Source: Chloranthus sessilifolius (lineage: Eukaryota; Streptophyta; Magnoliopsida; Chloranthales; Chloranthaceae). From it: a stretch of 64,000 nt of DNA. Every line of letters begins with the position of its first letter. The stretch's first letter is position 1. The notes beneath the pieces were generated by a model. It was not told the DNA's origin, made no database searches, and saw only the letters and a list, made by a program, of their open reading frames with translations. Positions 1,341-53,311 of the stretch are shown here, one piece after another. The stretch lies in contig CM037588.1 in assembly GCA_021018995.1 (NCBI GenBank), positions 79,953,765 through 80,017,764 on the forward strand, given 5' to 3'. Made by a program: the position numbers and the translations under genes.

Positions 1341-1455
1341 GGCGTATATAATATATACGCCCAGCCAAAATCCCTAGAAAATAGCCAGGCGTATATAATA
1401 TATATGCCCACTTAAATCTACCCCTTTTTGGTCGGGCGTGCATAACATATACGCC
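1341..1455 (+). promoter_or_regulatory. Dyad cluster A: three 47-bp palindromic units (T1 leader)
   Basis: Dyads of 21 bp start at 1341, 1388 and 1435, so the period is exactly 47 bp. The first is perfect: arms GGCGTATATA and TATATACGCC around a single A. The second has one changed base; the third is more degraded but keeps the outer GGCG and CGCC. The same cassette occurs upstream of both antisense genes and in the LTR of this element. A role in transcription is inferred from those positions. Confidence 0.75.
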
Positions 1456-2077
1456 CAGTGTAAACTGGGTCACAGCAACCCGGTCTGAGGCCCAATCCAC
1501 CACCCCAATTCCCCGATTAGCGGTATTAGTGCCCGCAGTAGCCTCCCGCATTCTGTAACACCCAATATGCCTCCGCCTAGTCAAAAGAAGGCAACTTCTC
1601 ATTGATTTGCTCTGAGGGATCGGGTCGTTTGCGTGGATTCCCTCACCTTCAATAGAACGAAGGGGTTCCCTTTCGCTTCTTCTGAAGTGTGTCGGATCCC
1701 GCCGTGGGGCCTTCTAAAGGTGCATATACCATTTAAGATGGGAATTGACCCTGGGCACCAGGTCATCTTTCATCTAGGTAGAGGGGAGTTAATTTCCATC
1801 AGAAAAAAAATCAATCAAAATAAAAAAATCAATCGAAAAAAAATCATCTTCAAAAAGAAAAACAAAAACAAAACAAAACAACCAAAATCATCTTCTAAAA
1901 CTAAAAAAAATCTTTTTCAAAAGCCAAAAAAAAAACCCAAAAAAAAAAAAAAGGAAAAATCAAAATATATTTTTTGTGACCGTCACCACGGCAACCTCAA
2001 ACCCGGTCCGTAGAAGGAGAACCAGGAAAGTATTCGGCCCTTACCCGAGACATCGATGAAACACTAGTTAACGGATC

Positions 2078-5000
2078 ATGTCAAGCGCTGATACATCCCC
2101 GCCATCATCCCCATCCCATTCCCATATAGGAGAAGACCCGGTCCCCGACACCTTCACCCAAACCCGGTTCGATGTCACGGGTCCATTTGGGGCACCCGTG
2201 TTCGCATCCACCTCGTCCCCCGCCCTTACATTTTCCCAACATGCCCCTACCTCATCCTCTACTGAAACACCTCATTTCCCAACCAACTCATACACCCCCA
2301 CTCCCCATCCGTACACCCTTGCCGCACCCCCTTATTCTCAAAGACCCCATCGGGAGCCCCATCCCCCGTCTACCTCCCACCTCCCATCCACCTCATCATC
2401 CATGCCCCCTACATCTTATATCCCATCCACATTATCTCACATACCCCCCACATCACATGGCCCATCCATATCCCAACATACCTCCCTATTTACCCAAGTC
2501 ATGCCCAACTTTTCCTGTGTGACCAGAACTGCCATCTTCCATAACCATACATCCACACCCTCCAAGCACAATCACTCATGCCCCCCATACTCGGGTCATG
2601 CCCAATTTCACCCAACCCCCTCTGTCCTCGAATGGGCCATCACCCTCCAATCTCACACCTGAATCCATGCCCTCAATGGAGGACATGCGAATGATGTATG
2701 CCCTGTGGGCTACCTCTCGAAATCCTACGTTCCAAACCCCACATCTAGGTCTCCAAAACCTCCATACCCCATTCCCCCATGACCATGCCCAACCACCAAT
2801 CATTCACACCATTCAAGATCCCCCACCTCAATTCCAGGCCCATTCCCAAGCCCAACAGACCCAAGCCCACTCACCTCAGGATAAAACCCACATGAATCCA
2901 TGGGCCCAGGCCCAAACCCAGGCTCAGGCCCAAGCCAAACAGACCCAGACCCAAGCCCAAAATCCTCAAGGCCCATGGGCCCGAGACCAAGCCCAATAGA
3001 CCCAGGCATAGACCCGAAATCCTCAAGGCCCATGGTCCAAAGCCCAAACCCATTAGACCCATGCCTAAGTCTAAAATCTCCAAAGCCCATGGGCCCAAAC
3101 CCAAACACATCAAAACCCTCAAGGCCCATGGCCCCAAACGCAACCGACTCAGGCCCGGGCCCAAAATCCTCAAGACCCATGGCCCCAAGCCCAAACCCAT
3201 CAGACCCAGGCCCAGGCCCAAAACCCTCAAGGCCCATGGCCCCAAACCCAACAGACTCAGGCCCCGGCCCAAAATCCTCAAGGCCCATGGTTCCAGGCCC
3301 AAACCCCCCATACACAAGCCCAGGCCCAAGCCCATCAGATCCAGGCGCAGTTCCAAACCCCCCAGGGCCCTTAGACCCAAACCTACCAAACCCAAGCCCA
3401 AGGCCCATCATCCCACACCCAATACCCACATGGCCCATTAGCCCAAACCCAGTAAGGCCCAGTGGCCTAAAATCATACCAACCTCCACGCCCAGGCCCAA
3501 GGCCCATCAACCCAAGCTTTCCTAAACCATCAAGCCCAAACCCAAGGCCCATCCACCCACACTCACCAAGGCTCGTTCACAAACCCCATACCCCCTCACC
3601 AGTACCCTTCATTCACCTATACCCCTTATGCCCCCATCCCGCCTCCAACAGAAAATCTGATCCACCGCATTCCCCAGAACCACGCCTACAACATCCCGCC
3701 ACATCAACCACACCCCCATCACCCCCAGAATGTGCACCCAGCTCAGCACATCACTCACCCACAAACCACTCATCCATTCACTCCCCCCCATCCCTTACAA
3801 GCCTTGTGGCCCCACCAGGTCATCCAACCCATTACCCCCCAGGTCCAAATAGCAGACCTCGCCCCTCACCAATACAATGACCAACAGTACGAGGAAGACG
3901 AGATCTGCAATAGCGAAGGAGCCACAAGTTTCACCCCCCCAGGCCCATCATCGTCACACCCAGGGCCGAACAAAATTAGGGGCAGGTAGTCCCAGCTACA
4001 TCCTCAAAAGAATCAGAGCAGCTAAAAGAATAGATTGACAGAATACAAAAGCAGCTGACGAAGATGGGAGGAGTAGAACTGTAGTCGACAGACTTCTCAA
4101 ACTTATGTCTATTCTTGGATGTCCCCTTGCCATAAAAATTTAAGATGCCATCATTCGATAAATATAATGGCACTGGCAACCCCATCGCCCACTTAAAATC
4201 TTACTGTGGGGACATGTGCCAGTACGGCAGAGATGAACGACTCCTCATCAAAGTGTTCTAAAAGAATCTAACGGGACCGGCACTAAGGTGGTTCACATCC
4301 CTAGAACCATCCATGACCAAAACTTGGAAAGGTCTGACACACTTATTCCAAGAACAGTATGTCTATAGCATGGACATAGAGCCAAGGAAGTCGGATCTGG
4401 CCCGTTTGAAACAAAGGCATGATGAAACTTTCAGTGCCTACTTAGGAAGTTTGAGGGCATTGGCCGCCCAGGTGACCCACCGGATTCCGGATGATGAGCA
4501 GATTGAGTTAATAACCAAGGGAGCGCTCCCAGTCATCGCAGAATTCTTGGTATATTAGCAGCAGTCCTGTTTTGCTGATCTGGTCTGAAATGCCAACCGT
4601 TGTGAAGACGCCGTCAGAAAAGGCAGATTAGGAAAGAGTATGGCCAACGGGGCCGTTGGGGTTCGGAAAGCTGCCGAACCAAGGGTTGAAAGGAGGGCAG
4701 GGGCAGAAGTGTAGAACATCATTTATCCCCAGGCCAATACCACCCCGATACAGCTCCAGGCTGCGCACCCACCCCCGGCCCATTTCGAACAAGTGCCAAG
4801 GCCGAGTAACGGACCGAGGGCCCCGTTCACCCAGGAACAGATGAAAGCATGATTCAAACGGGTCTTCACACCGTTAGGACATTCATTAAGTGTCTTATTG
4901 CCAGTGTTGCTACAGAAGGGTCTGGTCAATTTACTCTAGCCTCGCCCAACCCCCAATCCGATACTAAGGAACTACGACCCGAACCTGCATTGTAACTTCC

Positions 5001-5998
5001 ACCAAGGGCCAAGTCACCCTACGGACCGGTGCTTCCCACTAAAGCACGCAATCTAAGATTTAATAGAGGCGGGAAAAATTGTTCCCCCACCGCTTCCTCA
5101 GGGGCAAAACCAGAACATCCATCAAGCCCCTCTGCCACCGCATCCAGGAGGCCCCAGGCCTAACATCCACTGCGTAGAAGAGGAAGAGTTCGACCCCTCA
5201 GATTACATCAATAATCAAGAAGAGTTTTCATTTACCGGGTTGAACGAGGATGAACCAATTGTAGGGGTAATCGAGCCATTGTATTTAGCCGATTACTTCC
5301 CCGTGCCGGCATACCAAGAGGAGCCCTTAGATTTAGGGCAATATTTTTCTACTCCCGCTCCCACCTATAAAATCCAAACGGGCACAGCCCCGCCGCAGTC
5401 ATACGCATATCCACCCCACGCCCAATTTACTGCATACACCTCCCCGTCATACCCGAATCACCCCATACCATACATAATTCCGCCATCCTCATATTATCCT
5501 ACCCCATACACACCCCCAAATATCTCCACCCAATACACTACTCCGCCATCCCCAAATCACCCCGCTCCATGCACAACTCCATCATCCCCAATCTACCCCA
5601 TTTCATCCACAAACCCATCATCACCCCACCATGCCACCCCCTATACAAACCCTTCATATCCCTATCACCTCGCTCCACCCGCACCTCAGACGTCTCCCCA
5701 TCCCTCCATCCCAGTCACACTCCCGCCATCCCTTCGTTATTTTGGCCCCAATCCAACTCCACCGCCACCCAAGCAAGCAACCCTTCAACCAATCCCCTTA
5801 CCACCCGCTCCCAATCACCACTGGTCTTACCAAGCCTGTAATACAACCCCCCCACCCACAACCAACCTCAATTCTCGCCACTGCCATTCCGCCCCCTATT
5901 GGAGTCAACCTGGTTGGACTCGAGAAACTGGCATGTCAAACCCAATCCTCCCCAGAATCACCATACACTCCTTTCCTCATTCCGAAACCTGCCTATGA
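2078..5998 (+). pseudogene. gag: gag of T1 (broken)
   Basis: The ATG at 2078 opens a Pro/Ser-rich N-terminal region. Frame 2 then carries the proline-rich repeats, a short coiled-coil-like stretch (about 4000-4070), and the conserved gag core beginning near 4145 with MPSFDKYNGTGNP, then LTGPALRWFTSL and the retrotransposon gag helix region up to 4558. Around 4985-5070 there is a zinc-binding-like Cys/His stretch (HCNFHQGPSH...DRC). A second Pro/Tyr-rich region (5240-5998) follows. Nonsense codons at 4031, 4082, 4133, 4259 and 4556 all fit CAG/CAA to TAG/TAA. One frame change between about 5840 and 5950 leads into the protease frame. Gag would form the particle and bind RNA. Confidence 0.85.
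2961..3310 (+). repeat. Proline-rich minisatellite inside gag
   Basis: Units starting AAGGCCCATG repeat about seven times. Unit lengths I counted are 57, 57, 39, 51 and 57 bp, all multiples of three, so the gag frame is kept and each unit encodes 13-19 residues such as SRPMAPNP. Because the unit is made of CCCAAA/CCCAGG words, most frames of both strands are free of stops here. Confidence 0.85.
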
Positions 5999-6035
5999 CC
6001 CGCATCAGGTGCCGTTAAGCTATGAACAGACGGAC

Positions 6036-6986
6036 ATGAATGCTGGTTGCAACCAAGAGGAGGCTATTGAATTTGTTACTAGGTCAGGTCGAATTTCTAC
6101 ACAGCCGAAAGCATCAGGGGCCGTCAGAGGAGAAGAGAAGAAGAAAGAACAGGCCGCAGGGAATCCCTTTGAAAAAATGGCTAGAGAGCACATACTGGAG
6201 ATATAGCTCAAGAGAACACCCGCACATATCATTGTGTGGGATTTGTTAATCACGTCCCCACTCCATTTCCAAGCCTTAATGGGAGCACTCAAGGACGCAC
6301 ATGTCTCCACCCACGTAACTCTAGATGAAGTAGGAGAAATAATAGGGCAAGTGTTGGCCCCAAATGCCATCTCATTCACTGATGCAGACCTACCGATCGA
6401 GGGGAATGACCACTCTAAGACCCTGAATATAATAGTGGAAGTAGGAAACCTGGTGGTGCCGTTGGTCTTAATAGACAACGGGTCGGCGCTGAACGTGTGC
6501 CCTCTAAGGACGGTAATCAAAATTGGTGCGAACCATCCATATCAAGCGCCAGGGGATTCGACAACACCAGAAGAGATCATAGGAGAAGTAGACCTCGACC
6601 TGATCCTCGGGCCGCAAACCTTCACCACCCCCTTTCAGGTGATGGACATTAAGTCTACGTTCAATCTACTGTTGGGTCGGCCATGGATACATAAGCTCGG
6701 AGCAATACCATCGACTCTACACCAAAAGCTCCGATTTATTTTAGAGGAAAAGATCGTCACCATCTTGGGTGAGAGCAGAGAAGATAGGGAAAGAAGCACT
6801 CTGCATATTGAAAATCTGAAAGTGCTAAACATACAGCAGATGACGCCGATCTCCACCGATTCGAGTATGACTTCTCGATCGTTACACTCGGGCCAATTGA
6901 GAAAACTCCTGATAAAACTGGAGGAGGAATGGATGCAGCTGTGTTCATGCTCCATAAATGGGGCCACCAGAAAGGAAAGGGGCTAG
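6036..6986 (+). pseudogene. Aspartic protease region of T1
   Basis: The stretch VLIDNGSALNVCPL holds the catalytic Asp (codon 6474-6476) in the D-N-G-S form usual for the Tat lineage. It is followed by the flap region and by NLLLGRPWIH, the conserved second half of the retropepsin fold. Upstream in the same frame, VTRSGRI marks the gag-protease linker. A TAG interrupts the frame at 6204. The enzyme would cut the gag-pol polyprotein. The frame shifts again near 6930, where the G-patch part starts. Confidence 0.85.
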
Positions 6987-7477
6987 GCCTGCACCTTCAA
7001 GGAAGAAGAGACCCCGTCAGGGCTAAGGGGCAGCAAACCAGATTTAGCCTTAGCTATAAGCCCGATGAAAAAGCGAGAGAGGCCAAAGAAAAGATGAGAG
7101 CTGCAGCAGCCGCCAAGGCCAGGGGAATCGACCTGGAAGAAGAGCCTCCCGCCCGGCCCCACATCCGCCAAACCTTTGTAAGTGTCGGGGTGGTAAAGAT
7201 CGATCTAAATGGGGAGACGAGGATAACCCCACACAAACTTGTTTCAATCCACCCCACCAACCCTTACATCATCCCCCCAGACCTCGAGGTAGACTTGGCC
7301 GCCCTCTCCTTATTTGAGGAAGAAACCCCCGGGCCTGCCCACCACTCTAGCCTCAGCCACTTTGGGCCCACCCTAACCTTCAAAGACAGGATCCCAGAGG
7401 TTCCCTCCATAAACATGCTGAGGGGGGAACTGCAAGAGCCTACTGATGCCATTTCCAACAGAAAGGGTAAAGGCTAA
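6929..7477 (+). pseudogene. G-patch-like module after protease (T1)
   Basis: The segment HKWGHQKGKGLGLHLQG has the glycine spacing of a G-patch (GxxxGxGLGxxxQG), an RNA-binding module. It is followed by a basic Ala/Lys helix and an acidic linker towards reverse transcriptase. Position directly after protease agrees with what is known for some retroelement proteases that carry a C-terminal G-patch. The match is by eye; no profile search was run. Confidence 0.65.
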
Positions 7478-7653: not shown

Positions 7654-8820
7654 TTGCGAAAAACCATAAAAATAGAAAAAATACCAATTCCAAAAATATT
7701 GTCCTTTAAAATTCCTAATAAAATTGAAAAATACATCACGATACTCGTCCCACGTGAAGCCGACCCCTTCCCTGTAGAAATACAAGAAGAGGTAGGAGTC
7801 ACAAGTCTGGACGAGGAAGGTCAAGTCGATGAGCTCCCCAATGAGCTCCTCAAACAATTTGCTGATTTTGAGCATGGCCCTACCCCGATTGTCGAAGAGA
7901 TAGAGGATGTTAATTTGGGCACCAAAGAGGCCCCTAGAATCACCAAAATTAGAACATCGCTGTCCCCTGCAGAGAGAAAGGGTATGATAGACTTCCTCCG
8001 GTCATACCAAGACGTCTTCACATGGTCGTATGAAGACATGCCTGGTTTGGATACCGATCTGGTTGAGCATGAGTTGCCACTCTACCCTGATTGCAAGCCG
8101 GTTAAACGGAAGCTGAGACATCTCCGACTTGAATGGATGTTGAAGGTGAAGGATGAGGTCATTAAGCAGTATGATGCAGGTTTCCTCATGGTATCTAAGT
8201 ACCCCCAGGGGCTGACCAATATCGTCCTCGTTCCGAAGAAGGATGGAAAGGTTCGAATGTGCATTGATTTCTGAAATCTCAATAGGGCAAGCCCTAAGGA
8301 TGACTTTCTGCTACCATACATCGATATCTTGGTCGATAACACTGCAAAGCATGGAATTCTCTCATTTATGGATGGATTCTCAGGCTACAATTAGAATAAG
8401 ATGGCAGAGGCCGACCGAGAAAAGACTGCGTTCATCACCCCCTAGGGTACCTTCTATTACAAGGTAATGTCGTTCGGGCTCAAGAATGCTGGGGCAACCT
8501 ACCAGAGAGCAATGACGACCTTATTCCACGACATGATGCACCGAGAGATTGAAGTGTATGTCGACGACATGATTGCCATATCACCAGAAAGGGACGACCA
8601 CTTGTTCGAAAGCTGTTCGAGAGGTTGAGAAAGTACAAGTTGTGGTTGAACCCCCAGAAGTGCACGTTCGGCGCTATGTCCAAAAAACTGTTGGGCTTTA
8701 TTATCAGCAGGAGAGGGATTGAGGTCGATCGGACCAAGATCAAGGCCATCACGGAAATGCCATCACCATCTACAGAGAAGGAAGTCAGAGGCTTCTTAGG
8801 CAGAATCCAATACATCAGCT
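7654..8820 (+). pseudogene. Reverse transcriptase of T1
   Basis: Conserved boxes appear in order: an N-terminal region ending in a Tat-like SYEDMPGLD, then VPKKDGKVRMCIDF, LSFMDGFSGYN, MSFGLKNAGATYQR, the catalytic YVDDM (8557-8571) and LWLNPQKCTFG. Internal stops at 8272 (CGA to TGA), 8392 (CAG to TAG) and 8443 (TGG to TAG) sit in otherwise conserved boxes. A one-base frameshift near 8605 moves the last part to another frame. The enzyme would make cDNA from the element RNA. Confidence 0.92.
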
Positions 8821-9330
8821 AGTTAATTGCACAGTTAACTCTGATATGTGCACCAATCTTCAAGCTATTGAGAAAGGACTCCCCAGTTGAGTGGAATGAT
8901 GATTGCCAAGCTGCATTTGATAAGATTAAGGGTTACCTCCTAAATCCTCCAGTATTGGTACAACCTGTACCTGGTAGACCCCTAATAATGTACCTGTCCA
9001 CGACAGAGTTTTCCATGGGCTGTGTGTTAGGGTAGCACGATGAGACAGGAAGAAGAGAGCAGGCCATCTACTACCTGAGCAAGAAGTTCACTGATTACGA
9101 GATGCGCTACTCTCATCTGGAGAAAGCATGCCTAGCGCTTGTGTGGGCTACTCAAAGACTTCGACACTACCTGTTATCCCAAGCCGTCCTACTTCTAGCG
9201 CGGATGGATCCCTTGAAGTACCTGTTCGAGAAACCTGCTCTTACCGGTCGAACTGCGCGATGGTAACTATTGTTTTCTGAATTCGATATCACGTACGTCA
9301 CTTAGAAACCGATCAAGGGACAGGTGCTCG
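8821..9330 (+). pseudogene. First RNase H module of T1
   Basis: Translation in the frame of the preceding segment gives a connection region, then the typical LIMYLSTTEFSMG...REQAIYYLSKKFTDYEMRYSHLEKACLALVWATQRLRHYL order of a gypsy RNase H, with the Glu of the LEKACLAL helix in place. The first catalytic Asp is not obvious (YLSTTEFS where many elements have YLAVSE or DAS), which is common in the Tat lineage, where this module has degenerated. In-frame stops lie at the start of the segment, after VLG, and around 9265-9305. Confidence 0.8.
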
Positions 9331-9399
9331 CCAATCATCTTGCTGAGAACCCTTTCCCTGACTACGAGCCATTAAGAATCAAATTCCCAGATGAAGACA

Positions 9400-9870
9400 T
9401 CTTGTTCCTGACCGAAGATGATACAGAGGAAGCAGAAGAATCATGGGTAATGCACTTTGACGGTGCATCGCATGTCTAAGGCCAAGGAGTTGGCGCCATC
9501 CTAATTTTGCCAAAAGGATCCCATGTACCGATCTCTATCAAGCTCAACTTCCCCTGCACTAATAATATGGCTGAGTATGAAGCTTGCGCTGCCGGTCTAT
9601 AGGCAGCCCTTGATCTGAATGTAACTCACCTTCGAGTTTTTGGCGGTTCACATTTAATCGTATGCCAGATGAATGGTGATTGGAAAATGAAAGACGAGAA
9701 ACTGATCCCCTATCATGAATACCTCGAGGATCTAATAGCTTGCTTCCAAGATGTAACTTTCTCATACGTCCCTCGGATAAGGAATCGCTTTCCCAATGCA
9801 TTAGCAACTTTGGCCTCAATGATCGAAATCCCCTATGGTGTTGAGATGAAGCCGATCATGATCGAGCAGT
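9400..9870 (+). pseudogene. Second, archaeal-type RNase H of T1
   Basis: WVMHFDGASHV (Asp codon 9459-9461), NNMAEYEAC (Glu codon 9573-9575) and VFGGSHLIVCQM mark a second RNase H. The third acidic residue, usually GDS, is GGS here, so the active site is damaged. The C-terminal FSYVPRIRNRFPNALATLASM is the usual end of this module. A second RNase H located between the first and integrase is a known hallmark of the Tat lineage. Stops at about 9478 and 9600 fit CAG to TAG. Confidence 0.85.
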
Positions 9871-9997: not shown

Positions 9998-11050
9998 ATG
10001 AAAGAAATCCACGAGGGAGTATGCAGAGCCCACGTCAGTGGTCACATGCTCGCTAAGAAAATCCTACGATAGGGATACTATTGGACCACCATGGAGTCTA
10101 ATTGTTGCAAACATGTTCAAAAATGCTATAAGTGTCAGGAACACTCCAGTTTGATACACGCTCCTACCATTGATCTTCACTGCATGACCACACCTTAGCC
10201 ATTTACTACCTGGGGCCTCGACGTTGTCGGAATGATTAATCCGAAAGCTTCGAACGGACATCGGTTCATCCTCATTGCCATTGAATACTTCACCAAGTAG
10301 GTAGAAGCGGCGTCATATGCCAACATCACGGCCAGTCACGTTGAGAAGTTTCTCAAGAATAATATTGTGTGCTGATTTGGAGTACCTAAAGATATCATCA
10401 CGGACAATGGCACAAACTTTGCGAATAAGCGCATCCGAAACTTCTGCGAGCAATACAAGATCAAGCATCATCGATCATCCCCGTATAGGCCTTAAACGAA
10501 TGGAGTCGTAGAGGCGGCCAATAAAACTCTGATCCGCATTCTTGAGAAGATGGTAGTCACTTATAGAGATTGGAGTGAGCAGTTACCCTTCGCACTTTAG
10601 GCCTATAGAACGTTGATCCGTACCGCTATAAGGGCAACACCATTCTCCCTTGTGTATGGAACCGAGGCCGTCCTCCTAGTGGAGGTTGAGGTACCCTCAC
10701 TCCGAATCCTCATGGAATCAGGCTTACTCGAAGCAGAGAAAGAGAGATCACGCTTTGATCAGCTAAACTCTTTGGATGAAAAGAGACTCCTAGCCTTGTG
10801 TCACACTCAAGTTTACCAAGGGAGGATCGCACGCGCTTACAATAAATGTGTCCGCAGTCGAGATCTAAAGGTGGGAGACATTGTGCTGAAGAAGGTGTTC
10901 CCATCCCTCCATGCCGATCCAAGAGGAAAGTTTAAGCCGAACTGGGAAGGACCATACGTCATTTGGGAGGTGCTGCCGGGATACCCCATCCGCCTCGCCA
11001 CCATGGACGGAGATCATCTTCCTGAGCCCATCAACGCTGGATACGTCTGA
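9998..11050 (+). pseudogene. Integrase of T1
   Basis: The zinc-binding His/Cys region is AHVSGH followed by CCKHVQKCYKC. All three catalytic acids survive: Asp 10220-10222 (GLDVVG), Asp 10403-10405 (ITDNGT) and Glu 10511-10513 (VVEAAN), with exactly 35 residues between the last two (DD35E). The C-terminal part has the chromodomain-free gypsy end KFKPNWEGPYVI...EPINAGYV and stops with TGA. The stretch that normally links the second RNase H to the zinc region is missing, so a deletion occurred just before 9998. Six TAG codons inside fit CAG or TGG changes. Confidence 0.92.
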
Positions 11051-12769: not shown

Positions 12770-14237
12770 ATCTCTGCAAGAAGAGAGTCCTCATGAGCAT
12801 TTCGATCAGACATCCAGCTACTATGAAGACTCTTCTGCCGTCTTCGCGAAGCGTCGGCTGTACTGCGAGATTTAGTCAAAAGCCCAGTCAACCGAAGAAT
12901 CTCACTCTACCGTCAGCCTCGCAATCTCAATCTCGGCTTCCCCAAAGCCTCAGTCAAAGATAATTTCTCTACAAAAAGAGACTCAATCCTAGTTCGAAGC
13001 ATTGTTTCCTTACATGGCCAAGGCCCCGTCTCTATCACATCTGCCAAAACTGGGCTAGGGGCAGGTAATTCCTCATATGCCAGCCAAACCTCGTAATCAG
13101 AAGAGACTACGTCCCCTTGAGTTAAGCTACACATGTGCGCCGATTGACGAGTCTCCCAGAGGATGGCTATGCGGTCTAGGTCATTGAGAGAACCCCGAGA
13201 GAATACAGAGAGCACAAAGGTGGCCTCACAGAGCATGGGACATGTTGAGTATACCTGAATTGACGAAGCACCCGAGAGGGGAAATAATATGTGCTACCAG
13301 TCAACCCCAAAAGTGTGATACCCTCACAATCCCGAGAGCGGACAATCGGAAAGGTACCATCCAACCAGGGAAGTTGCCAGATCAGCTCTGAATCAGATAG
13401 CGACAGGTTCAGTTCTTCGATGCTCCCATGGGGCAGCCTCGAGTAGCGTGTTAGAAACCCTCGGGCCACATCCCCTCTCCCTAAGAAAAACCTCGGTACA
13501 TGCCCCATGATAGCGAAATGCTCTCCTAGCCAAATCTGAATGAGGCGTGGACTCCCGCGAAGAATCCCAACCCGGCCCGAGGCCGAGGCATCCAAGCCCC
13601 GATACATCTCAGCCAAGACTAGGTGCACCAATGAGCGGCCTCCCTCCAATTCGGTCAAAACATCGCATAGCCCGAGAGAAAAGGTCTCGCCCCCAGTAAA
13701 GAAGAGAACTTTCGATAGCAAATAAAGGGCAAAGGCCTTCACATTGAAAGGATCTCGGATAGGCAACTGGCGGAGACTTGGGTCGCCAAAAAGTTCTCTC
13801 AGGAATTTCACTGAGCACCTAGAGGGCCCGCCGGCAAAGCCCTTCTCATACCCACCCTTTTTCAAACCAAGAACTGCGTAGACTGCCTTTGCATATCCCG
13901 GTTTAGGCACCACTTTGGCAAGCCCCCGATGCATCCTCAAGCCGATGATAGAGGCTAGCTCCACCAAGGTTGGGGTGAGCTCCCTCGACCCGAATCTGAA
14001 AACATGAGCCCTATGGTCCCACAATGCTAAAGCTGCCTTCAGGAGGTCGGGAAACAAAGGAACAACAAGGAGAGAGGAAAGGCGGGTTAACCCGAGGCGA
14101 TCCAGAGCAGCGAGATCGCCCTCAGCCAAGCTAGCGCACCACTGTTGCAAAAAGCTGGGCCCCGAGTCCAAACAGGGAAGTACACTAACCCCATCCCCCG
14201 TATGAGAATTTAGGCCGGGAAGCGGGTCCATAGACAT
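12770..14237 (-). CDS. T1 antisense gene 1: plant-mobile-domain-like protein
   Basis: An ATG at 14237 opens 353 codons on the strand opposite to gag-pol. Residues 73-100 read WDHRAHVF..GSRELTPTL..LASIIGL, the signature of the plant mobile domain family (WDxxxHxFxFxxxELTPTLEExxxLxGL). Later parts, such as the Leu-rich helix region and DCEGITLLGLTGSTYYFP, also fit that family. A one-base frameshift near 13190 moves the end into another frame, which continues with LNDLDRIAILWETRQSAHMC to 12913; homology with T2 goes on to about 12770. No intron is seen. The dyad cluster B lies 180-290 bp upstream of the ATG. Antisense genes of this type are known in the Tat lineage; their molecular role is not established. 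Confidence 0.85.
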
Positions 14238-14415
14238 ACAAAGATGTCCTATAAAGCTCAGTCAATGTAGGACGATGGACCCGCTTATCGAAGAGAAAGA
14301 AAGAAAAAAAGAGAGAAGGAAAAAGAGGAGAAAAAAAGGCAAAGCCTGAGTAAATAGCGAAGCAAAGAGGGCTAGGCGCGGGTTATAGGGAACCCGCTGG
14401 GCATCAGTCATAGGA

Positions 14416-14531
14416 GGCGTATATAATATATATGCCCAGCCAAAAATTCAAATTTTTAGCCAGGCGTGTATATTATATACGCCAGGGTAATGTGGCAATT
14501 ATGTTTGCCTGGCGTATGTAATATATACGCC
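14416..14531 (-). promoter_or_regulatory. Dyad cluster B: three palindromic units upstream of antisense gene 1 (T1)
   Basis: Dyads start at 14416, 14463 and 14511 (spacing 47 and 48 bp). All keep GG at the left end, CC at the right end and a TATA-rich centre; the arms differ from perfect by one to three bases. The cluster sits just outside the leader of the antisense gene 1, whose ATG is at 14237. Promoter function is inferred from position and from the same arrangement in T2. Confidence 0.78.
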
Positions 14532-18230: not shown

Positions 18231-18257
18231 GTTTAAAAAAACTGCCAATTCTAGTCA

Positions 18258-18326
18258 GGCGTATATAATATATACGCCCGGCTATTTTTCGTTGCATTTT
18301 GGTCAGGCACATATATTATATACGCT
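18258..18326 (-). promoter_or_regulatory. Dyad cluster C: two palindromic units upstream of antisense gene 2 (T1)
   Basis: A perfect 21-bp dyad starts at 18258 (arms GGCGTATATA and TATATACGCC) and a damaged one at 18306, 48 bp later. The expected third unit near 18353 is absent. The pair lies immediately upstream of the 5' exon of antisense gene 2. In T2 the equivalent place holds three units. Confidence 0.77.
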
Positions 18327-18339
18327 GGACCAGAAACGG

Positions 18340-20231
18340 CAGTTTTTAAAACTGCCCGGCCATTTTTCTACTTTGAGGCCCGACGGCCCCCCTTGCATGC
18401 TATAGGCTACGGCCCGGTCTCCCTTAGAAGCCCACACACCATCAAGTGATGGTGCACGCATCACCAAATGGCCCTTCGAGCTCTCTTCGACTAGCCGAAA
18501 GGAACCGTGCCACAATAAACGAATCTAGATCTGCAAGCACCCGCTAAGTGCTCCATAAAATCATAAGATTCAAAACAAAAAAGGAGAAAAAAAGAAAAAA
18601 AAAAAAAGAAAGAGAATTGCTTAAATGACACTAGTTCTCAAAAGAGCATCGCAATGACCATTTGTGTCGCTTTGAGAACCGTGTTAAATCAATTCGGAAT
18701 GATTGGGTTCACCCGAAAGTTCTCAAACCCTATTTTATACAGGGACACCCCATACCTGATTCGGCAGGCAAATGAACTTCATCCATCACCGGTTACTCCT
18801 AGGAACATACACCTAGCTCAAGATCTTCCCCGGCAGAAGTCGAGACCTGATCCGGCAAGCAAACCAAGGACTTATCACCGGAGTGCACACGTCCTTAAGG
18901 TATATCAACATGGCAAGTTGACCTGCCTAAGGATACATGCAAAAATAAAAATAGTTTGAGCATGCTCAAAATCTCGAACTAACATGTGCAAAAAAAGAGA
19001 AAAAAGAAAAAGAAGGAGAAGGTTCGGAATAACAACCTGTTTGTTAAGTAGATAAAATCCTGAGTAGGTTGACCCCACCTTCCATGTATTGGTTCTGACC
19101 ATCCACCCTCTGATCCATGATTGACCAAGGGTGCACCCGACTTCAGACCATTCAAAAAGTTTATTGTCAGTTGAAACTAACACGTCAAAAATGAAATTAC
19201 CACCAACCAAACTATGTGCAAACATACAGACCGAAGGGCTCATTCCCTTTTATTTTCTTTTACACAGGCTTAAAACCTGTATAGGCACGGTGTCCCTGTT
19301 TACGCACTTGCGTATGGGTATCCGCAGGATGGTCGTTTGTCCTCGTAAATTGTACCTTAGGGAAAGCTTCCGAGGCTTATTCGGCCTATTATTTGTACGT
19401 AAGATGTGATTTCATTAGGGACGGAGGCTAGAATTGACCATCTCTTTCGATGGATGTTTGGTTCTAGCTCGATCCTTTTTAACATTATCTCGAGTTAAGG
19501 CATTTCGGTTCATGTGAATCAGGAGCACCTCGCCACCAGAACGAGCACATCCCCAAGGTGTACCCATCCCCGATAGCGCGTACGCATTCTTAAAGAATTA
19601 TGCAAGAATAAAATTGGTAGAGGTCCTTGAGCTTCGTTTAGAGGCCTCGAAACAAAAGAAAATTAAAAAAAAAAACAAAAAAAAAACAAAAACATAAAAA
19701 ATTACTCTGAAAATGGGCATGCATTCCCAAGAAGTATTGCGACATCAATATTCGCTCCACTCGGGTAAATCATGTTAAAGCAACCTCGAGGTTGATGGGT
19801 TCACCTAAAAAATTTGAGCCTTACCTAGGTAAGGGCACCCGTGGCCAATCCAATGGAGCTGTCAATACCCCATAGGATTGGACACATTGTTTAGGCCTTT
19901 ACTTTGCGTGCTTCACATCGACTCTAAGGCATAGATCGATCATCCCGTTTCATGGAGCTGTCTAGTTCAGATTAATACTCAACATCACAAATCTATCATT
20001 TCCCTCAAGAAGTGGACGATATCCCGACTAGCGGGCTTACACTTTCTGTGATCATCGCAGTTATGCCCAGTAATGTCGCAATGCGCTTGGGGATTATTAG
20101 CTTTAAGGAACGGATGATATCCCGAAATGAGAGGGCTTACGTACACTCACCATCACCATGAATGTTTGAGAATTGAGTTGAACCAGGCAGACCCACCAAA
20201 CATGCCTTGGACCTCCTCGGATGTCTCTTGT
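18340..20231 (+). other. Non-coding region between antisense gene 2 and the 3' LTR (T1), with an internal duplication
   Basis: No gene is seen. A block near 18640-18760 (ATCGCAATGACCATTTGTGT ... ATGATTGGGTTCACCCGAAA) is related to 19735-19850 (GCGACATCAATATTCGCTCC ... TTGATGGGTTCACCTAAAAA), so one module is present twice. T2 has one copy at about 52200-52320. The last 250 bp before the LTR, including ATGTCTCTTGTCTTTGGCAT, are conserved with T2. Confidence 0.65.
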
Positions 20232-20276: not shown

Positions 20277-20662
20277 TGTAGACACCCAAATTCGGCCCAA
20301 GGCCCGATCAATCTGTACTTTGAGAGAGATGTACCCCTGTGCTTCCGATGGCACCCTCTAACCCTTAGGAACCTATCTAGACCTTTAGAAATCACCTAAA
20401 ACCCATCAGAACCATTCCCCCAACCCTTAGAGATCGCCCATAAACCCTAGGATCCCTTCCCAAACTCAATTTAAACCCTTCTGAGAATTTGATGGGAGGA
20501 GAGCTATAAATTTTTATACAGACTACTACTAAGGATAAGCCACATACCATTGGAAGGAGATCTTCTCCAGCTTTGCAACGAGCCAAAGATCACCCAATTT
20601 AGAGTTGTGGTTCAAAAGTTATGACCGTTTGAAGTTTCACATAAAATGACAACTTTTGCTCA

Positions 20663-20869
20663 GGCGTATGTATTACATACGCCCAGCCAATTTGGCCCTA
20701 GATTGGTCAGGCGTATATATTATATACGCCTGACATTTTTGGAACAAATTTGGTCGGGTGTATATAATATATACGCACAACATAGATGTGATACGGGCAC
20801 CCATCTTCTCGATTTCCCCACGTTTTCTTAATTTTCTTGTGCATAAAAGCTGGTATGTAATATATCGCC
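20663..20869 (+). promoter_or_regulatory. Dyad cluster D: four palindromic units in U3 of the T1 3' LTR
   Basis: Units start at 20663, 20710 and 20757 (47-bp steps) and a degraded one at about 20851, two steps further. The 20663 unit has arms GGCGTATGTA and TACATACGCC: both arms changed together and the dyad is still perfect. The 20710 unit extends to 14-bp perfect arms GTCAGGCGTATATA / TATATACGCCTGAC (20706-20734). The cluster is about 280 bp upstream of the TATA box, the place of an upstream activating region. Confidence 0.82.
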
Positions 20870-21151
20870 CGACTTAGCTATCTGATATCTGTCATCAAAT
20901 GCTCAAAATTCCTCCATCTGGTTTGACCCTTTGACCATCCCCTTGGTTAAGGTAGGTGTCTTGAGGTTGGTTGCACCCCCTTTGAGCTTATTGGCAACCC
21001 TTAGGTCACCCATGGTCTCACCCCATCATCCGCCATTAAAATCAGTTTTCCAAAACCCTAGGACCTTGAAAACCTAGAAAACATAAGATGGGGGATTACC
21101 TAATTGCTAAACCAATTAGCTCTTAAGTAAGCCTCTAACCCACCTCTTCTC

Positions 21152-21159
21152 TATAAATA
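21152..21159 (+). promoter_or_regulatory. TATA box of the T1 LTR
   Basis: TATAAATA in the context CTCTATAAATAGAGAGG is a strong plant TATA box. Transcription would be expected to begin about 30 bp downstream. T2 has the same box at 53589. Confidence 0.8.
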
Positions 21160-21861
21160 GAGAGGCCCCCCTCTTCCCAAAGGGTTGAATTTTTTGGTGA
21201 AAGATTTGAGAGCTCTTAAGAGAGAACCCTAGTGAGAGAAAATGCCACTTATTTTCCAGAATTCTAGCAAGCTTAGTTCATCTTTTTCAATCCATTTCCA
21301 CCATTAGATCACTCCCTTTAGCTAAAGTCTAGCCTTTGGCCTCACCCTACACTTCCTATTTTATTGAATCCTAGCATTAGAACCAATTTTCACACCATTT
21401 AAGCCATCGGAAGCACGCCAAAGCGAAGGACTTCCACGGTGCAACAAGGGCCCATGAGCTCCGGCTCACCTCTCTCTTCCTCTACCTTCTTGGTGTCTCC
21501 TCCGTCCAAGGATTCAAGCCGTTATGCCCTCAAAATTTCGGTTTGGCTCAAAGCTTGATAGGACCGTATTGCCTTCGGGCAAGGGGAAACTCTGCCCTTT
21601 TATTTTTATTTTTAGCCATAGATAGAGACCGCTACTTGCGGGTTGATCGGGTGCCTAAACCCTTTCCGATTGATAACCGAAGCCCCTACCCTAGAGCCTT
21701 TGGCAAAGACCGGTAAATCAAAGTCATATTTAGCACTTCGGTGCTCAAAATATTGATTTAAAGGTTTCCCGGGTCACCAAAAGCTCTGGGTGGCGACTCT
21801 ACATTTCATTCCATTGTGAGCGCATCGTCGCGACGAGTTCGAGAGGATCCATGCTCGCACA

Positions 21862-46276: not shown

Positions 46277-47926
46277 TCATTGACGTGTTGAAGTGTCGAT
46301 AAATATCTGCAGCAGGCAATCGCAACAAACTTGGAACCTTGCTAGAAACCCCTTTATTTTTAACATTCCAAATGCTGCATCGCTAGAGTCCACTAGGACA
46401 GAATTGGAAGCCACTGATTCAACGGGAACCGAGAGGAACCCATAAAGAGCGTGCACCAATAGTAAGGTGTCCTCCCGAACATCCCGCTCTATCATCTAGC
46501 AGCCATGAAGACTCCTATGTCATTTCTTGGAAGCATTAGTAGCATGCAGAGTGTCACTCAAAGCCCCTTCTAGATGAAGGACCTCACACTCAACTACATC
46601 AGCTCTGGCTTCTGTTGCTTATGTTCTAACCTTTTATTTCTCTAAATGATCATGCAAAGTTTGCTTCTCATCCACCACCAGCTCAATACAAGATCGAAGC
46701 ATCGACTCCTTCTTTGGCCATTGTCCTCCTATCTCACTACACTCAGGCTGATCCAAGTGATAAGCAGAGGGCCTCTTAGATAGCAGCCAAGACTCAAACT
46801 CTGGAGAGGTCAAATCTGAATTCCCCTGCTCTAGATCGCACATATACATCGACTGGCGCTTTTCCCATAGAGCAGCTATCCTATCCAACTCTCCAAGGGA
46901 TCCCTAATAGAAAATCAAGTGGCATAAGGATGGGGTCACCGCAAAGGGCACCTGCTGAGACCAACCAAACTAGTGCACTACTCGAAATGGGAAATAGTAA
47001 GTGCTACCGGTAAGACCAAGGAGAGTAATGCCCTCATAATATCTGGAGTGAACCACTAGGAAAGCCTTATCTAACTAGGGAAGCCTCCACACCAATTCAG
47101 CTTTAGCCCTTGTATATCCCCCTGTGGAAGCATGTGGCATCTACCTAAAAAGCAGCGGGCCACCTCACCTTGAACACATAAAAGCGGGGCGCGGGTCCCA
47201 AGATTATAAGATTCTCCCCAAGCCAAATTTGGAGCAAGACGGGACATCCCCGGAGGCCCTCCACCTTGCCTAGAGCGAAGACATCAAGGCAACGATAAAG
47301 CTCTGCCAGCACCATATGCATCACATAACGACCTCCCTCTAACTCCGCCAAAACATTGCAGAGTGCAGAGAAACTCTCTCCCCTAGTATAGAAAAGAACC
47401 TCGGAGATAAGGCAAAGGGAAAAGGCCTTCACATTATGATGATTTTTCATCAGTAATTTTCACAGTCTTTCCTCTCTAAAAAGTTCTCTCAGGAATTTCA
47501 TCGAACACCTTGTGGGCCCACCAATGAGACTTTTCTCATAATCATTTTTCTTCAAGCCTAAGGTGATCTGGACTGCCTTTGCGTACCCGATTTCTGCAGT
47601 ACTCTGATAAGGTCTCTATGCAGCCTCAAACCCAATAGATTGGGGAGCTACTCGAGAGTAGGAGTCAACTCACGATTCCCAAAACATAAGACATGGGTGT
47701 TAACTCCCCAAAATGAAGTCGCTGCATAAATGAAATCCCAAAGAGGAGGAACTTCAAGGAAAGACGAGAGATGGGCCAATCCAAGCCGATCCAAACCTTC
47801 GAGCTCGCTCTCATTAAAGCTCTCAAGCCACTTACTTAGAAAATTGGGCCCCACGACCAAAGTGGGAAGTATAGTGGTCCTGGACCCCCCACGAGAGGCG
47901 GGGTTAGAAAGCGGGTTCATTATCAT
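46277..47926 (-). pseudogene. T2 antisense gene 1 (plant-mobile-domain-like, broken)
   Basis: It matches T1 antisense gene 1 in order: ATG at 47926, GLDRLGLAHLSSFLEVPPLWDFI, WGVNTHVLCFGNRELTPTLE, then (47450-47145) VKAFSLCLISEVLFYT...VLAELYRCLDVFALGKVEGLRG, then LGELDRIAALWEKRQSMYMC near 46888 and RSLHGC near 46500. Several frame changes and stops separate the pieces, for example a TAG right after ELTPTLE. No intron is seen. Dyad cluster E is 165 bp upstream of the ATG. Confidence 0.82.
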
Positions 47927-48089
47927 ACAAAGATGTTCCCAATATACAATTCAATATAGGACGATGGACCCACCCTTGGGCAAGCAAAAGAAAAAAGGGC
48001 AGCAAAACATATCAAGTCTAAAACAAAGGAGGGAAAAATAAGTGCATTCTCGGGCTTAAAAGGCCCCACATTTTTCCTAGATGGCACTT

Positions 48090-48204
48090 GGCGTGTATAA
48101 TACACACGTCAAGCCTGTTTTGGCCAGATTTGGCTTGGCATGTATAATATACATGCCAGGCTATTTTTGGCTCAATTTGTCCTCCGCATATATTATTACA
48201 CGCC
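48090..48204 (-). promoter_or_regulatory. Dyad cluster E: three palindromic units upstream of T2 antisense gene 1
   Basis: Units start at 48090, 48137 and 48184, an exact 47-bp period. The middle one is perfect with different arms from T1: GGCATGTATA and TATACATGCC. Compared with the GGCGTGTATA form both arms changed together, but both changes are CpG-type transitions and could have arisen by decay. Spacers keep AAGCC...TTTGGC...GATTTGGCTT-like sequence. Confidence 0.8.
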
Positions 48205-48625: not shown

Positions 48626-51018
48626 CTAAATCAAATCAAAACAGGCATAATCCTTATCTGCACCCTTGGATTTCTTACGATGGCGCGAGGTACTGTGGTA
48701 TGTCTGAACCTCTCCCACCCGAGACCACGCCTGCGATAACCTCCCAAGCAATGATCCCGACCCCTTCTCACGAGCACGCTGCAAACCTCACACCAAGAGG
48801 TCAGCTTGAGTAGAAGTAAGAGCAGCAAACCAAGAAGTCAGAGCTGATCAACAAAGCACTTACCATCTCCACATCCTGAAGATCTGTGATATTGCGATAA
48901 TACTCAACTTGATTCAAGGTCGACTCGTAGTTCAGCACAAAAAGGGATATCAGCTACAAGGGCCATAAGTGCAAAAATAGGCATTTCTCGAAAAAGAAAA
49001 TGTACAAGAAAGAAAACTCATTCCTGGGACCAATTCAGGAGGAGGGACCCAGACCGCTTCAGCAGATAGGCGGGCCAGCTAGGCAACATCAGTGCATAAA
49101 CTCGAAAGAAAGGCATCATCAAGGTGTCTGAAGGTCCCCTGAATCTCAGTAGTCGAACTACAAGAAGCACCCATGCCAGAGGGGCCTGAAGGACCAACAC
49201 CCATAGCCTCAGCAGGACCTGCCTTCGTCTCATCATCATCATTAGAATCATCTCCTCTGTCGAACTATGAAAAGAAGCAAGGATTCGGTCAGTAGAGATA
49301 AAATTGAATTAAAACCATTAAAAACTTGCCTAAAGAGCAAGGAGAACTACCTAAGATCGCAGACCGTCGAAGGCTGAAAAGTTGGCGCCAGGTACAAAAT
49401 GCGGAAGGAGGGACCGATAAGGCAGGGACTCATACCACATCGGGTATCCTCCAGGCATGAGAAGATCATCAATAGGGACCCCATGATGGAGAAATCCGGT
49501 GGAGAGCTCCTCGATAGTACCCTCAGGAGACATAACATCCACAGGAGGAGCCTACAACACAATAAATTGATCCCGGTACTGATGTAGCACCCTCTCCCCC
49601 AAGTAATATGCCTTGGCCCAGGCCCCATAAAATAAAATGACACAACGATCAACGAAAAAGTGAGACGAACCCACGGCGGCTTGATCCTAGAAAGGAGAAC
49701 AAATGTAGGATCAAAGATGACCTGCAATGAAAAAAAAAGAATCCTATCAGTCAATAGCCACCATCAGACCTTGAAAGAGGGAGAGAAGAGGAAAGTATCC
49801 ATACCTGCTTTGGGATCAACAAGTCAAATTGAGACCTTAGGCCCAGCTCTAAATGCTTCATTTCGTCATCCCTACGGTGACTCTTGTGTTAGTTACTCAT
49901 GAGTGGATAAGTGTAAACATAGGATAAGAGGAGAGGGCAACCAAGTTGGAAGTGCAGGTACCCCCAAATCTGAAGAGAACAATAAACATAAGTGATGTGT
50001 TGAAGGCAGGGTAAATGACCTGTAAAAAAAAAGAGAAGAAACAAGGGAAGTGAGTCAGGGGTTACCTCAACCGCAGGCTAGAAACCGACCACTAAACCTA
50101 GGTCCCCAACTGAGGCTCATGCCAGGGTAGACAGTAGCATGGCATATCTGGCCCCACCCCAATCGTACCAGTGGACATTGCCCTAATTGCCCATGATACT
50201 AAGTACGAACAATGAAACCTAACCTCTGCTGGTACTGGCAAAAAGAGTTTTGCCCAAGAGGAAGAGGAGCGAGCTGCGAGCCAACATCAAGGCATGCCCA
50301 AGCTCAATAGGGATATTTGAATTCGGCTTATCCAGATCCACCAATTCATTCTCATTATATAAATTGGCCAGCCAAGATAACTTAACCTCAGTGCCATGCA
50401 TATGTTGGGAGGAGGGGAAATCCCCGATCAATTGAACCACCTCAACCCGACTTGGCACCGAAGGCCGGTCACCAGTGTCCCCCTATCCTAATCCCCGTAA
50501 TCATCGACCAATCAACCAGGGTGACGGTCATCTCGATTATCGGCATGTGAAAGGTCATGGTCTCGGGCCGGAAGTGTTCGAGAAGGGCCTTCAGATAGGC
50601 TGAGTCGCCCCTCATGGCGGGACATGAAAGGAAATCCCCGAAAATGGCCTAGGCAAGAAGTAACTTCACAACCGGGGGAAGGTAGAGTTAAAGGCGCTGG
50701 AGGTCAAACCAACCCCCAAGGAATGTGATCGATAGCAAGGCTTGTATCAAAATAAAGAAGTATCAGATCCTAAAAATAAAGCAAGTTCACACACAGAAAA
50801 GACAAAGCGGCAAAATAAACTTGTTTTACTACCTTGCCGGCAATCCAAAAGTTTGAGATATGGATATGCTGTTGTTCAAGTAGACTGGCATGGGCTGCCT
50901 TGCCCTACATCTCATACCAAAGACAGGAAGAGCGTTGCACTGCAAAAAATTGCTCCCCCGGGGACCATAGACCACCTCAGGCCCCTCTTCTTGCCCTTAC
51001 TCCTCCTTGCTCGACATT
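48626..51018 (-). pseudogene. T2 antisense gene 2 (spliced, plant-mobile-domain-like, broken)
   Basis: The exon order of T1 is repeated: ATG at 51017 (MSSKEE) with acceptor CTCAG before it and donor GGCAAG|GTAGTA near 50831; the GGWFDLQRL exon from about 50720; LEHFRPETMTFHMPIIEMT; the YLGER-type exon around 49740-49380 (WYESLPYRSLLPHFVPGANF); the QVEYYRN exon with donor GAGATG|GTAAGT; and a last exon RAREKGSGSLLGRLSQAW...SRHRKKSKG ending at TAG 48626. Stops and one-base losses occur, for example in a C/G run of the first exon. The shared splice sites are the best support for the gene model in both copies. Confidence 0.8.
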
Positions 51019-51770: not shown

Positions 51771-51793
51771 TAAAACCACCCCTGTTTTGGCTT

Positions 51794-51908
51794 GGCGAGT
51801 ATAATATACTCGTCAAGCCTCTTTTGGCTAGATTTGGCTTGGTATGTATAATGTACACGCTAGGCTATTTCTGGTCCAATTTGGCTTGGCGCATATATTA
51901 TACCCGCC
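51794..51908 (-). promoter_or_regulatory. Dyad cluster F: three palindromic units upstream of T2 antisense gene 2
   Basis: Units start at 51794, 51841 and 51888, again exactly 47 bp apart. The first has arms GGCGAGTATA and TATACTCGTC: compared with the GTGTATA form the arms changed T-to-A and A-to-T together, a paired transversion that CpG decay cannot explain. The units are flanked by CTTGGC and GCCAAG, which extends the dyad in this element. Confidence 0.82.
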
Positions 51909-51909
51909 A

Positions 51910-52707: not shown

Positions 52708-52752
52708 CTTTGGCATTCGATCATTAGTGATTAGATACCAAAGAGAGGCAGC
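52708..52752 (+). promoter_or_regulatory. Stem-loop and polypurine tract before the T2 3' LTR
   Basis: CTTTGG (52708-52713) pairs with CCAAAG (52738-52743). The inner stem is weaker than in T1 (CGATCA opposite TGATTA). The purine run AAAGAGAGG follows, then CAGC and the LTR start TGTAGACACAC. Confidence 0.72.
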
Positions 52753-53105
52753 TGTAGACACACAAATTTGGCCTAAGGCCCGATCGAAACATACTTCGAG
52801 AGACATGCAGCCCCTGAGCTTCTGATAGCATCCCCCATACCCTTAGGAACCTTCACAAATCCTTAGAAACTTACCTGAACCCTTTGGAATTACCCCTAGC
52901 TTCCCCACACCCATAGTTAACCCACCGGGGCAATGGTTAGAGAGAGATGTATAGGGCTGCCAAAGACCTCTCTTGAGATAAAATTTTATACCATTGAAAA
53001 GTAGAAGATCCCAGCTTTCCGACAATCCAAGAATCACCTCAATCCTAGTTGTACGTCAAAAGTTACAACGATCCAAAGCTTCGATCTCAAAACCACACCT
53101 TAAGT

Positions 53106-53311
53106 GAACCTCTCGAGAGGTTCTTGAGAGGATGGGCATGCTTGGCGCATATAATACATGCGCCAAGCCATTTTTAGGAAGAAAATTGCCCATTTTTTCC
53201 CAAAAATGGCTTGGCGTGTATATTATACACGCCAAACATGGATGGGTCCCCTAGTGGGCTCTAAACTTCTCTGTTACTGTACATATGCGTGGCGTAGATA
53301 ATACATGCTCC
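53106..53311 (+). promoter_or_regulatory. Dyad cluster G in U3 of the T2 LTR
   Basis: An 18-bp perfect palindrome GAACCTCTCGAGAGGTTC (53106-53123) precedes dyads at 53144, 53213 and 53291. The 53213 unit is perfect, with arms GGCGTGTATA and TATACACGCC; the 53144 unit has GGCGCATATA opposite TACATGCGCC with one mismatch. Spacing is 69 and 78 bp, so the 47-bp rule is lost here. The cluster is about 280 bp upstream of the TATA box, as in T1. Confidence 0.78.

What the first reader, a model, noticed from the sequence alone, without database searches (positions are those of the whole stretch)
1341..53311. A 47-bp palindromic cassette repeated at the transcription units of two Tat-type elements
Seven clusters (1341-1455, 14416-14531, 18258-18326, 20663-20869, 48090-48204, 51794-51908, 53144-53311) hold 2-4 units each. 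A unit is a 21-bp dyad (10-bp arms around one A/T) plus a 26-bp spacer with AGCC/TTTGG words. Starts are 47 or 48 bp apart in six clusters, and 94 bp (two steps) to the last copy at 20851. Clusters sit upstream of antisense gene 1, upstream of the 5' exon of antisense gene 2 and in LTR U3, in both T1 and T2; T1 has one more in the leader. The same cassette at every start region of one element suggests coordinated control of sense and antisense genes, perhaps by a dimeric protein, possibly the element's own. I do not know of a described equivalent.
Basis: partly seen in the sequence, partly recalled or inferred. Interest (0 to 1): 0.9.

Follow-up and report, generated by a model that had tools for sequence, protein, structure and literature searches.

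The report
Shared palindrome arrays in jumping genes
A very abundant plant jumping gene carries the same short palindromic DNA site, usually repeated every 47 bases, in front of its main promoter and both of its backward-facing genes, which looks like a built-in switch that could control all its genes together, perhaps worked by a protein it encodes itself.

Summary
Seven clusters of a 21-bp dyad lie where stated; 17 of the 20 strict matches in the window fall inside them, against 0-4 in random windows. The host is an unnamed 2.17-Gb plant genome. T1 and T2 are related LTR retrotransposons (T1: Tat type with Ogre features) with two antisense plant-mobile-domain (PMD) genes each. Genome-wide the T1-type pattern occurs 8961 times, its reversed control never. 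The first 15 listed sites (11 clusters) all lie in T1/T2-type elements, at U3, leader or the antisense-2 promoter. Of 15 upstream regions of antisense gene 1 chosen by protein alone, 15 carry 2-4 dyads, 46-49 bp apart. None of 24 other PMD loci has one. Arrays differ by whole units. Dyads are among the best-conserved stretches at the antisense promoters, but not in U3 or leader. T1 and T2 use different symmetric versions, each shared across its clusters. Best reading: binding-site arrays for a symmetric DNA-binding factor linking the LTR and antisense promoters. That the factor is the element's own PMD protein is inferred, not shown. Nearest analogue: the VANC system of VANDAL transposons.

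The parts
1341..1455 (.). T1 leader cluster: dyads at 1341, 1388, 1435 (steps 47, 47), between PBS and gag
   Evidence: same place in copies L013, L017, L042, which were found through the dyad
14416..14531 (.). T1 cluster upstream of antisense gene 1: dyads at 14416, 14463, 14511 (steps 47, 48)
   Evidence: 15 of 15 copies chosen by protein carry 2-4 dyads there
18258..18326 (.). T1 cluster upstream of the presumed 5' exon of antisense gene 2: dyads at 18258, 18306 (step 48)
20663..20869 (.). T1 3' LTR U3 cluster: dyads at 20663, 20710, 20757 plus a decayed fourth near 20851; the fourth scores 9/10 in T1's own 5' LTR
48090..48204 (.). T2 cluster upstream of antisense gene 1: 48090, 48137 and a weak 48184 (step 47)
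51794..51908 (.). T2 cluster upstream of antisense gene 2: 51794, 51841 (weak), 51888 (step 47)
53144..53311 (.). T2 U3 cluster: 53144, 53213, 53291 (weak) (steps 69, 78)
13176..14261 (-). T1 antisense gene 1, open frame with plant mobile domain
   Evidence: Pfam PF10536 E 5.9e-14; 12290 candidate places in the genome, 113 scored
15155..16967 (-). T1 antisense gene 2: PMD in 16074-16967, further open pieces 15552-16073 and 15155-15565
   Evidence: Pfam PF10536 E 3.2e-20 for 16074-16967; frames; whether the three pieces form one gene was not tested
46916..47935 (-). T2 antisense gene 1 remnant (48-60% identical to the T1 protein, in pieces)
   Evidence: tblastn
49342..50696 (-). T2 antisense gene 2 remnant (55-71% identical to the T1 protein, in pieces)
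   Evidence: tblastn
20277..21861 (+). T1 3' LTR (1585 bp); GCTGA flanks both ends of T1; TATA box at 21151
483..500 (+). T1 primer binding site (tRNA-Arg type by recall)
   Evidence: sequence
8446..9869 (+). T1 RT, RNase H and second RNase H (RVT_3) pieces in that order
   Evidence: Pfam

Best explanation
The clusters are arrays of binding sites for one symmetric (dimeric) DNA-binding factor. They act as upstream regulatory elements that tie together three promoters of a Tat retrotransposon with Ogre features: the LTR promoter for gag-pol, and the promoters of two antisense genes encoding plant-mobile-domain proteins. A further array lies in the leader. TATA-like sequence follows about 20-30 bp past the nearest dyad at the antisense genes, and a TATA box about 280 bp past the last dyad in U3. 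Shown here: the arrays, their places, their whole-unit copy-number changes, their conservation at the antisense promoters, their confinement to these elements in the loci sampled, and a family-specific version shared by an element's clusters. Inferred: that a protein binds them as a dimer and changes transcription or chromatin. More tentative (about 0.3): the protein is one of the element's own PMD proteins, so the element regulates or un-silences itself as VANC-encoding transposons do.
For: Genome counts: 8961 T1-type and 108 T2-type dyads against 0 for the reversed patterns; 9321 for a looser pattern, control 0. First 15 listed sites (11 clusters): 15 of 15 in T1/T2-type elements, at U3, leader or the antisense-2 promoter, none of the 15 at antisense 1. 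Upstream regions of antisense gene 1 chosen by protein only: 15 of 15 carry 2-4 dyads, the first 155-168 bp from the match, steps 46-49; length differences are whole units. Dyads there are 0.91-0.94 identical against a mean of 0.80 for 41 other 21-column windows; at antisense 2, 0.85 and 0.97 against 0.69. The unpaired centre is about as fixed as the arms, which argues for DNA rather than an RNA hairpin. TATA-like sequence follows the nearest dyad in both families. Window units of one family are more alike across places (0.748) than units of the same place across families (0.651); the grouping ranks 1 of 35. Pooled over both families, arm position 5 changes symmetrically in 22 units against 8.9 shuffled (maximum 16). 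0 of 24 other PMD loci have the dyad.
Against: No transcript-start, binding or methylation data. Within a family, symmetric double changes are not above shuffled expectation except weakly at arm position 3 in T1; pooled, position 11 is not above shuffles either (19 against 18.0). Most T2-type loci were fetched with a symmetric T2 pattern, so part of the T2 version is selection. In U3 and leader the dyads are not clearly better conserved than neighbours: 38, 14 and 28 of 79 U3 windows, and 4, 32 and 41 of 47 leader windows, do as well or better. The leader array has no known promoter. PMD has no shown DNA-binding activity; the best PDB matches by sequence had E 0.3 and 0.4; the structure model was useless. 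The published motif linked to host PMD proteins (CATGCAGTTT, PMC9899485, passages) is unlike the dyad. One copy that lost both antisense genes keeps dyads, but its deletion junction was found nowhere else among the scored places, so it says nothing on action in trans.
Confidence: 0.6

Rival explanations
1. The dyads are binding sites for a host transcription factor that the element exploits, as with stress elements in plant LTRs; the element's own proteins are not involved.
For: Common precedent (recalled); PMD has no shown DNA-binding fold.
Against: A host factor would not be expected to change its site in step within one family, yet T1 and T2 use different symmetric versions. None in the flanks of 24 other PMD loci. 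If the list is in coordinate order, the first 56 Mb of C1 hold no match. Host gene promoters at large were not searched.
Confidence: 0.3
2. The dyads are themselves core promoter sequences: TATATAATATATA arrays serving as bidirectional TATA boxes.
For: The TATAWTATA centre is nearly invariant in the antisense-1 alignment.
Against: A separate TATA box (CTATAAATAGAG) lies at 21151 and 53588, about 280 bp past the last U3 dyad; TATA-like sequence also follows the antisense arrays; the GC ends and the 47-bp repetition are unexplained.
Confidence: 0.1
3. The dyads work in RNA (hairpins or dimerisation of the genomic RNA, e.g. packaging); all clusters lie in the sense transcript.
For: All arrays, including the leader one, should be part of the genomic RNA (inference from their places); the arms can pair.
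Against: A one-base centre would force a smaller stem; the would-be loop bases are about as conserved as the arms; RNA packaging gives no reason for arrays at antisense promoters.
Confidence: 0.1
4. Neutral by-product: a short palindromic tandem repeat that expands by slippage and is homogenised by gene conversion within the element, without function.
For: Whole-unit gains and losses; similarity within an element can come from conversion; tandem arrays of unknown function are common in Retand elements (PMC11963269, section 12); U3 and leader dyads are not clearly better conserved than neighbours.
Against: Neutral spread does not explain the same places in two families whose antisense proteins are only 48-71% identical, nor the higher conservation at the antisense promoters.
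Confidence: 0.15

Closest known systems
VANC / VANDAL21 anti-silencing system of Arabidopsis (PMC5735166 passages; PMC10398659 abstract)
   Same: Transposon-specific short motif in tandem arrays in noncoding regions, introns and upstream of its genes; arrays vary by unit and evolve together within a family; motif rare elsewhere.
   Different: VANDAL is a DNA transposon (recalled) and its motif is a directional 9-mer; binding by the element's protein was shown there. Here it is an LTR retrotransposon, a 21-29 bp palindrome with a 47-bp period, and the binder is unknown.
Tat/Ogre retrotransposons with plant mobile domain extra ORFs (PMC6317226 passages: PMD in 57% of Ogre elements)
   Same: PMD extra genes, a second RNase H, large element with long LTRs, 5-bp target duplication.
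   Different: The passages read do not mention dyad arrays; the paper was not read in full.
Retand antisense TRP28 genes and Grande gene23 with its own promoter (PMC11963269, section 11 first part and section 12; PMC7264820 passages)
   Same: Antisense genes between pol and 3' LTR, a suggested regulatory role, tandem repeats nearby.
   Different: Different protein domain (TRP28 against PMD); no motif shared by LTR and antisense promoters in what I read.
MAIN/MAIL1 host PMD proteins and the DOWN promoter motif (PMC7156037 and PMC9899485 passages)
   Same: PMD proteins tied to transcription of genes with a promoter motif and to transposon silencing.
   Different: The motif CATGCAGTTT differs; direct DNA recognition was left open in those passages as well.

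Membership tests
Tat clade, Ogre lineage (element T1) | second RNase H between RNase H and integrase | tested here: inconclusive
   T1: RVT_1 8446-8819, RNase H 8823-9263, RVT_3 9603-9869 in that order; no integrase match was obtained for the pieces given from 10305-11047, so the integrase side is not shown. Not tested for T2.
Tat clade, Ogre lineage (element T1) | plant mobile domain extra ORF (57% of Ogre elements in PMC6317226) | tested here: met
   two antisense PMD frames in T1, PF10536 E 5.9e-14 and 3.2e-20; T2 pieces by tblastn only, with no Pfam match of their own
Tat clade, Ogre lineage (element T1) | tRNA-Arg primer binding site | tested here: inconclusive
   TGGTGACTCTGCTGGGGA at 483-500; match to a tRNA-Arg of this host not computed
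Tat clade, Ogre lineage (element T1) | reverse transcriptase phylogeny | not tested
   T1 RT is in pieces; no tree built
VANC-type self-recognition system | element-specific motif in tandem arrays at noncoding regions | tested here: met
   (sampled loci)
VANC-type self-recognition system | motif bound by a protein encoded by the element | not testable with these tools
   needs EMSA or DAP-seq; structure prediction failed
VANC-type self-recognition system | loss of DNA methylation over the element when the protein is present | not testable with these tools
   no methylation data
VANC-type self-recognition system | VANC protein family homology | not tested
   Pfam gave PMD for antisense 1 and 2; no VANC protein was compared

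The most novel reading that the evidence does not exclude
The antisense PMD proteins of Ogre-type retrotransposons are sequence-specific dimeric regulators (activators or anti-silencers) that recognise their own family's palindrome arrays at the LTR, the leader and their own promoters, so that each family is a private positive-feedback regulon whose protein and site diverge together. This would be a first molecular role for transposon PMD proteins and a VANC-like system in an LTR retrotransposon.
Probability: 0.3. Interest if true: 0.88.

Novelty: new variant of a known kind. Interest (0 to 1): 0.72.

Why it matters
Antisense genes are reported as common in Tat retrotransposons and their function as open (PMC11963269, PMC7264820). 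A family-specific palindrome shared by their promoter regions and the LTR gives a concrete, testable target for these proteins. It would also bear on why PMD proteins affect promoters and silencing, and on how a family with thousands of dyad sites coordinates its genes or escapes silencing.

Tried and rejected
Chance palindromes: rejected (and the reversed-pattern controls). A motif of any PMD gene: rejected, 0 of 24. A motif of every LTR of this general kind: the LTR start at 43944 has none nearby. Two steps of 47 to the fourth U3 copy: rejected, 100-101 bp in other copies. A mobilised PMD-less derivative as evidence for action in trans: not supported, the junction of L019 was found only at its own place among 40 scored of 769 candidates. 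Structure of antisense protein 1: failed, pLDDT 43.7 with 10 sequences, so no fold search was run. PDB by sequence: nothing usable. Covariation inside a family: mostly not above shuffles. Tandem repeats in one other PMD locus (L069): low-complexity arrays, no dyads. Papers: the listings showed no title or abstract start describing such dyad arrays; only open-licence papers are held and most were not opened, so this is not proof of absence.
Full report
WHERE IT IS. The window is G000:C5:79953765-80017764 of an unnamed 2.17-Gb genome in 32 contigs. T1 has both LTRs and a target duplication but a broken pol. Its 3' LTR is 20277-21861, its 5' LTR begins left of the window and is split by a nested insert of about 8.2 kb, and GCTGA flanks both ends. 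T1 has RT, RNase H and a second RNase H in that order, and two antisense frames with plant mobile domains. T2 (about 46.9-54.3 kb) is a diverged relative seen from antisense gene 1 to the LTR, with its antisense genes in pieces.

THE OBSERVATION. All seven clusters exist. Seventeen of 20 strict dyads in 64 kb are in them; 20 random windows gave 0-4. A motif-blind scan found 22 palindromes against 2-10 in 10 simulations, with 12 of the 22 in the clusters. Steps are 47 or 48 in six clusters; the T2 U3 cluster is irregular (69, 78), but other T2-type U3 copies also show 46-48 bp steps. The fourth U3 copy is decayed in the window, scores 9/10 in T1's own 5' LTR, and lies 100 or 101 bp past the third in other copies.

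GENOME-WIDE. The T1-type pattern occurs 8961 times with no match for the reversed control; the T2-type 108 times, control 0; a looser pattern 9321 times, control 0. The 50 T1-type sites listed, all on C1, form 33 clusters. Their gaps often repeat the order U3, leader (about 2 kb), antisense 1 (about 13 kb), antisense 2 (about 3.7 kb), U3 (about 2.6 kb), as at C1:79331107-79352561; 6 of the 33 have no neighbour within 25 kb. Fifteen loci came, the first listed, in 11 distinct clusters. All 15 align to T1/T2-type elements, at U3, leader or the antisense-2 promoter and none at antisense 1. L019 belongs to a copy that lacks both antisense genes.

AN INDEPENDENT SAMPLE. Antisense protein 1 has 12290 candidate places, 113 scored. 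I fetched 500 bp upstream for 15 of the 113, taken from near the top of the list without looking at dyads: 15 of 15 have 2-4 dyads, the first 155-168 bp from the match, steps 46-49. The alignment shows gain or loss of whole units, and TATAA about 30 bp past the nearest dyad in 14 of 16 sequences, T1 included. As a control, 24 other PMD loci (top hits of the Pfam model; three full-length host-gene-like, the rest not classified) with 1.5 kb flanks have none.

CONSERVATION. In 16 aligned antisense-1 upstream regions the dyads are 0.906-0.942 identical; 41 other 21-column windows average 0.799, and 3 of the 41 reach the dyads (neighbours). At antisense 2 (5 copies) the dyads are 0.848 and 0.966 against 0.693; 4 and 0 of 45 windows reach them. 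In U3 (8 copies) 38, 14 and 28 of 79 windows, and in the leader (4 copies) 4, 32 and 41 of 47, do as well or better than the dyads. Apart from the window, the U3, leader and antisense-2 copies were found through the dyad, so they are not independent. Of dyad changes, 24 of 81 in T1 and 24 of 104 in T2 are CpG transitions (distinct 21-mers), as methylation would give.

FAMILY VERSIONS. T1 units read mostly GGCGTATATAWTATATACGCC; T2 units mostly GCTTGGCGTGTATAWTATACACGCCAAGC (95 and 40 distinct units, picked by core and ends, not by arm pairing). The families differ on both arms at position 5 (A, G) and position 11 (mixed, T). Pooled, symmetric change exceeds shuffles at position 5 (22 against 8.9), 6 (3 against 0.4) and weakly 3, but not at 11 (19 against 18.0). 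Within a family it does not, except weakly at position 3 in T1. A bias: all T2-type loci were fetched with a symmetric T2 pattern (one of them, L056, aligned to T1 and was counted there), and part of the T1 loci with the T1 pattern. The window units are free of that bias: one family at different places shares 0.748 identity, the same place in different families 0.651, and the true grouping ranks first of 35 relabellings, the best possible rank for seven clusters.

ANATOMY AND MECHANISM. Counting in the printed sequence, TATA-like sequence begins about 29 bp (antisense 1) and 20 bp (antisense 2) past the nearest T1 dyad, and about 28 and 18 bp in T2 (TTTTAA type). Pyrimidine-rich sequence follows. 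At antisense 2 a conserved AAGGTAATC in T1, L012 and L044 could be a splice donor. In U3 CTATAAATAGAG lies about 280 bp past the last dyad in T1 and T2. This is the layout of upstream regulatory sites rather than of core promoters. The fixed TAWTA centre argues against an RNA hairpin, where it would be loop. A symmetric, family-specific site shared by all clusters suggests a dimeric factor whose preference differs by family. The element's own PMD proteins, 48-71% identical between T1 and T2, are natural candidates. That step is inferred.

COMPARISON. PMD extra ORFs in 57% of Ogre elements are published (PMC6317226, passages). The function of antisense Tat genes is reported as open (PMC11963269; PMC7264820). 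The nearest working model is VANC (PMC5735166, passages). Host PMD proteins are tied to a different motif (PMC9899485, passages). I therefore call this a new variant of a known kind.

LIMITS. One genome; no expression, binding or methylation data; no other plant genome could be searched here; the structure model failed.

Noticed in passing
left of the window, L009 (T1 5' LTR): T1's 5' LTR is split by a nested insert of about 8.2 kb lying between the third and fourth U3 dyads; LTR retrotransposons are reported to target palindromes often (PMC6911290, title and abstract start in a search listing only).
   Followed up: partly
43944: Another LTR start with the same first bases (TGTAGACACCC) and a similar polypurine tract but no dyads nearby.
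   Followed up: partly
L064: A plant mobile domain frame lies in the same direction as, and next to, a frame that looks like a gypsy integrase by eye, unlike the antisense arrangement of T1; no dyads.
   Followed up: no
L019 760-1720 (C1:61.249 Mb): A T1-type copy lacks both antisense genes but keeps dyads at U3, leader and the antisense-2 promoter; the deletion junction was found only there among the scored places.
   Followed up: yes
18237-18347: The antisense-2 dyads are framed by a further inverted repeat (AAAACTGCC/GGCAGTTTT).
   Followed up: no
6812-7477: G-patch domain (PF01585, E 1.1e-05) in a sense frame of T1 upstream of the reverse transcriptase.
   Followed up: no
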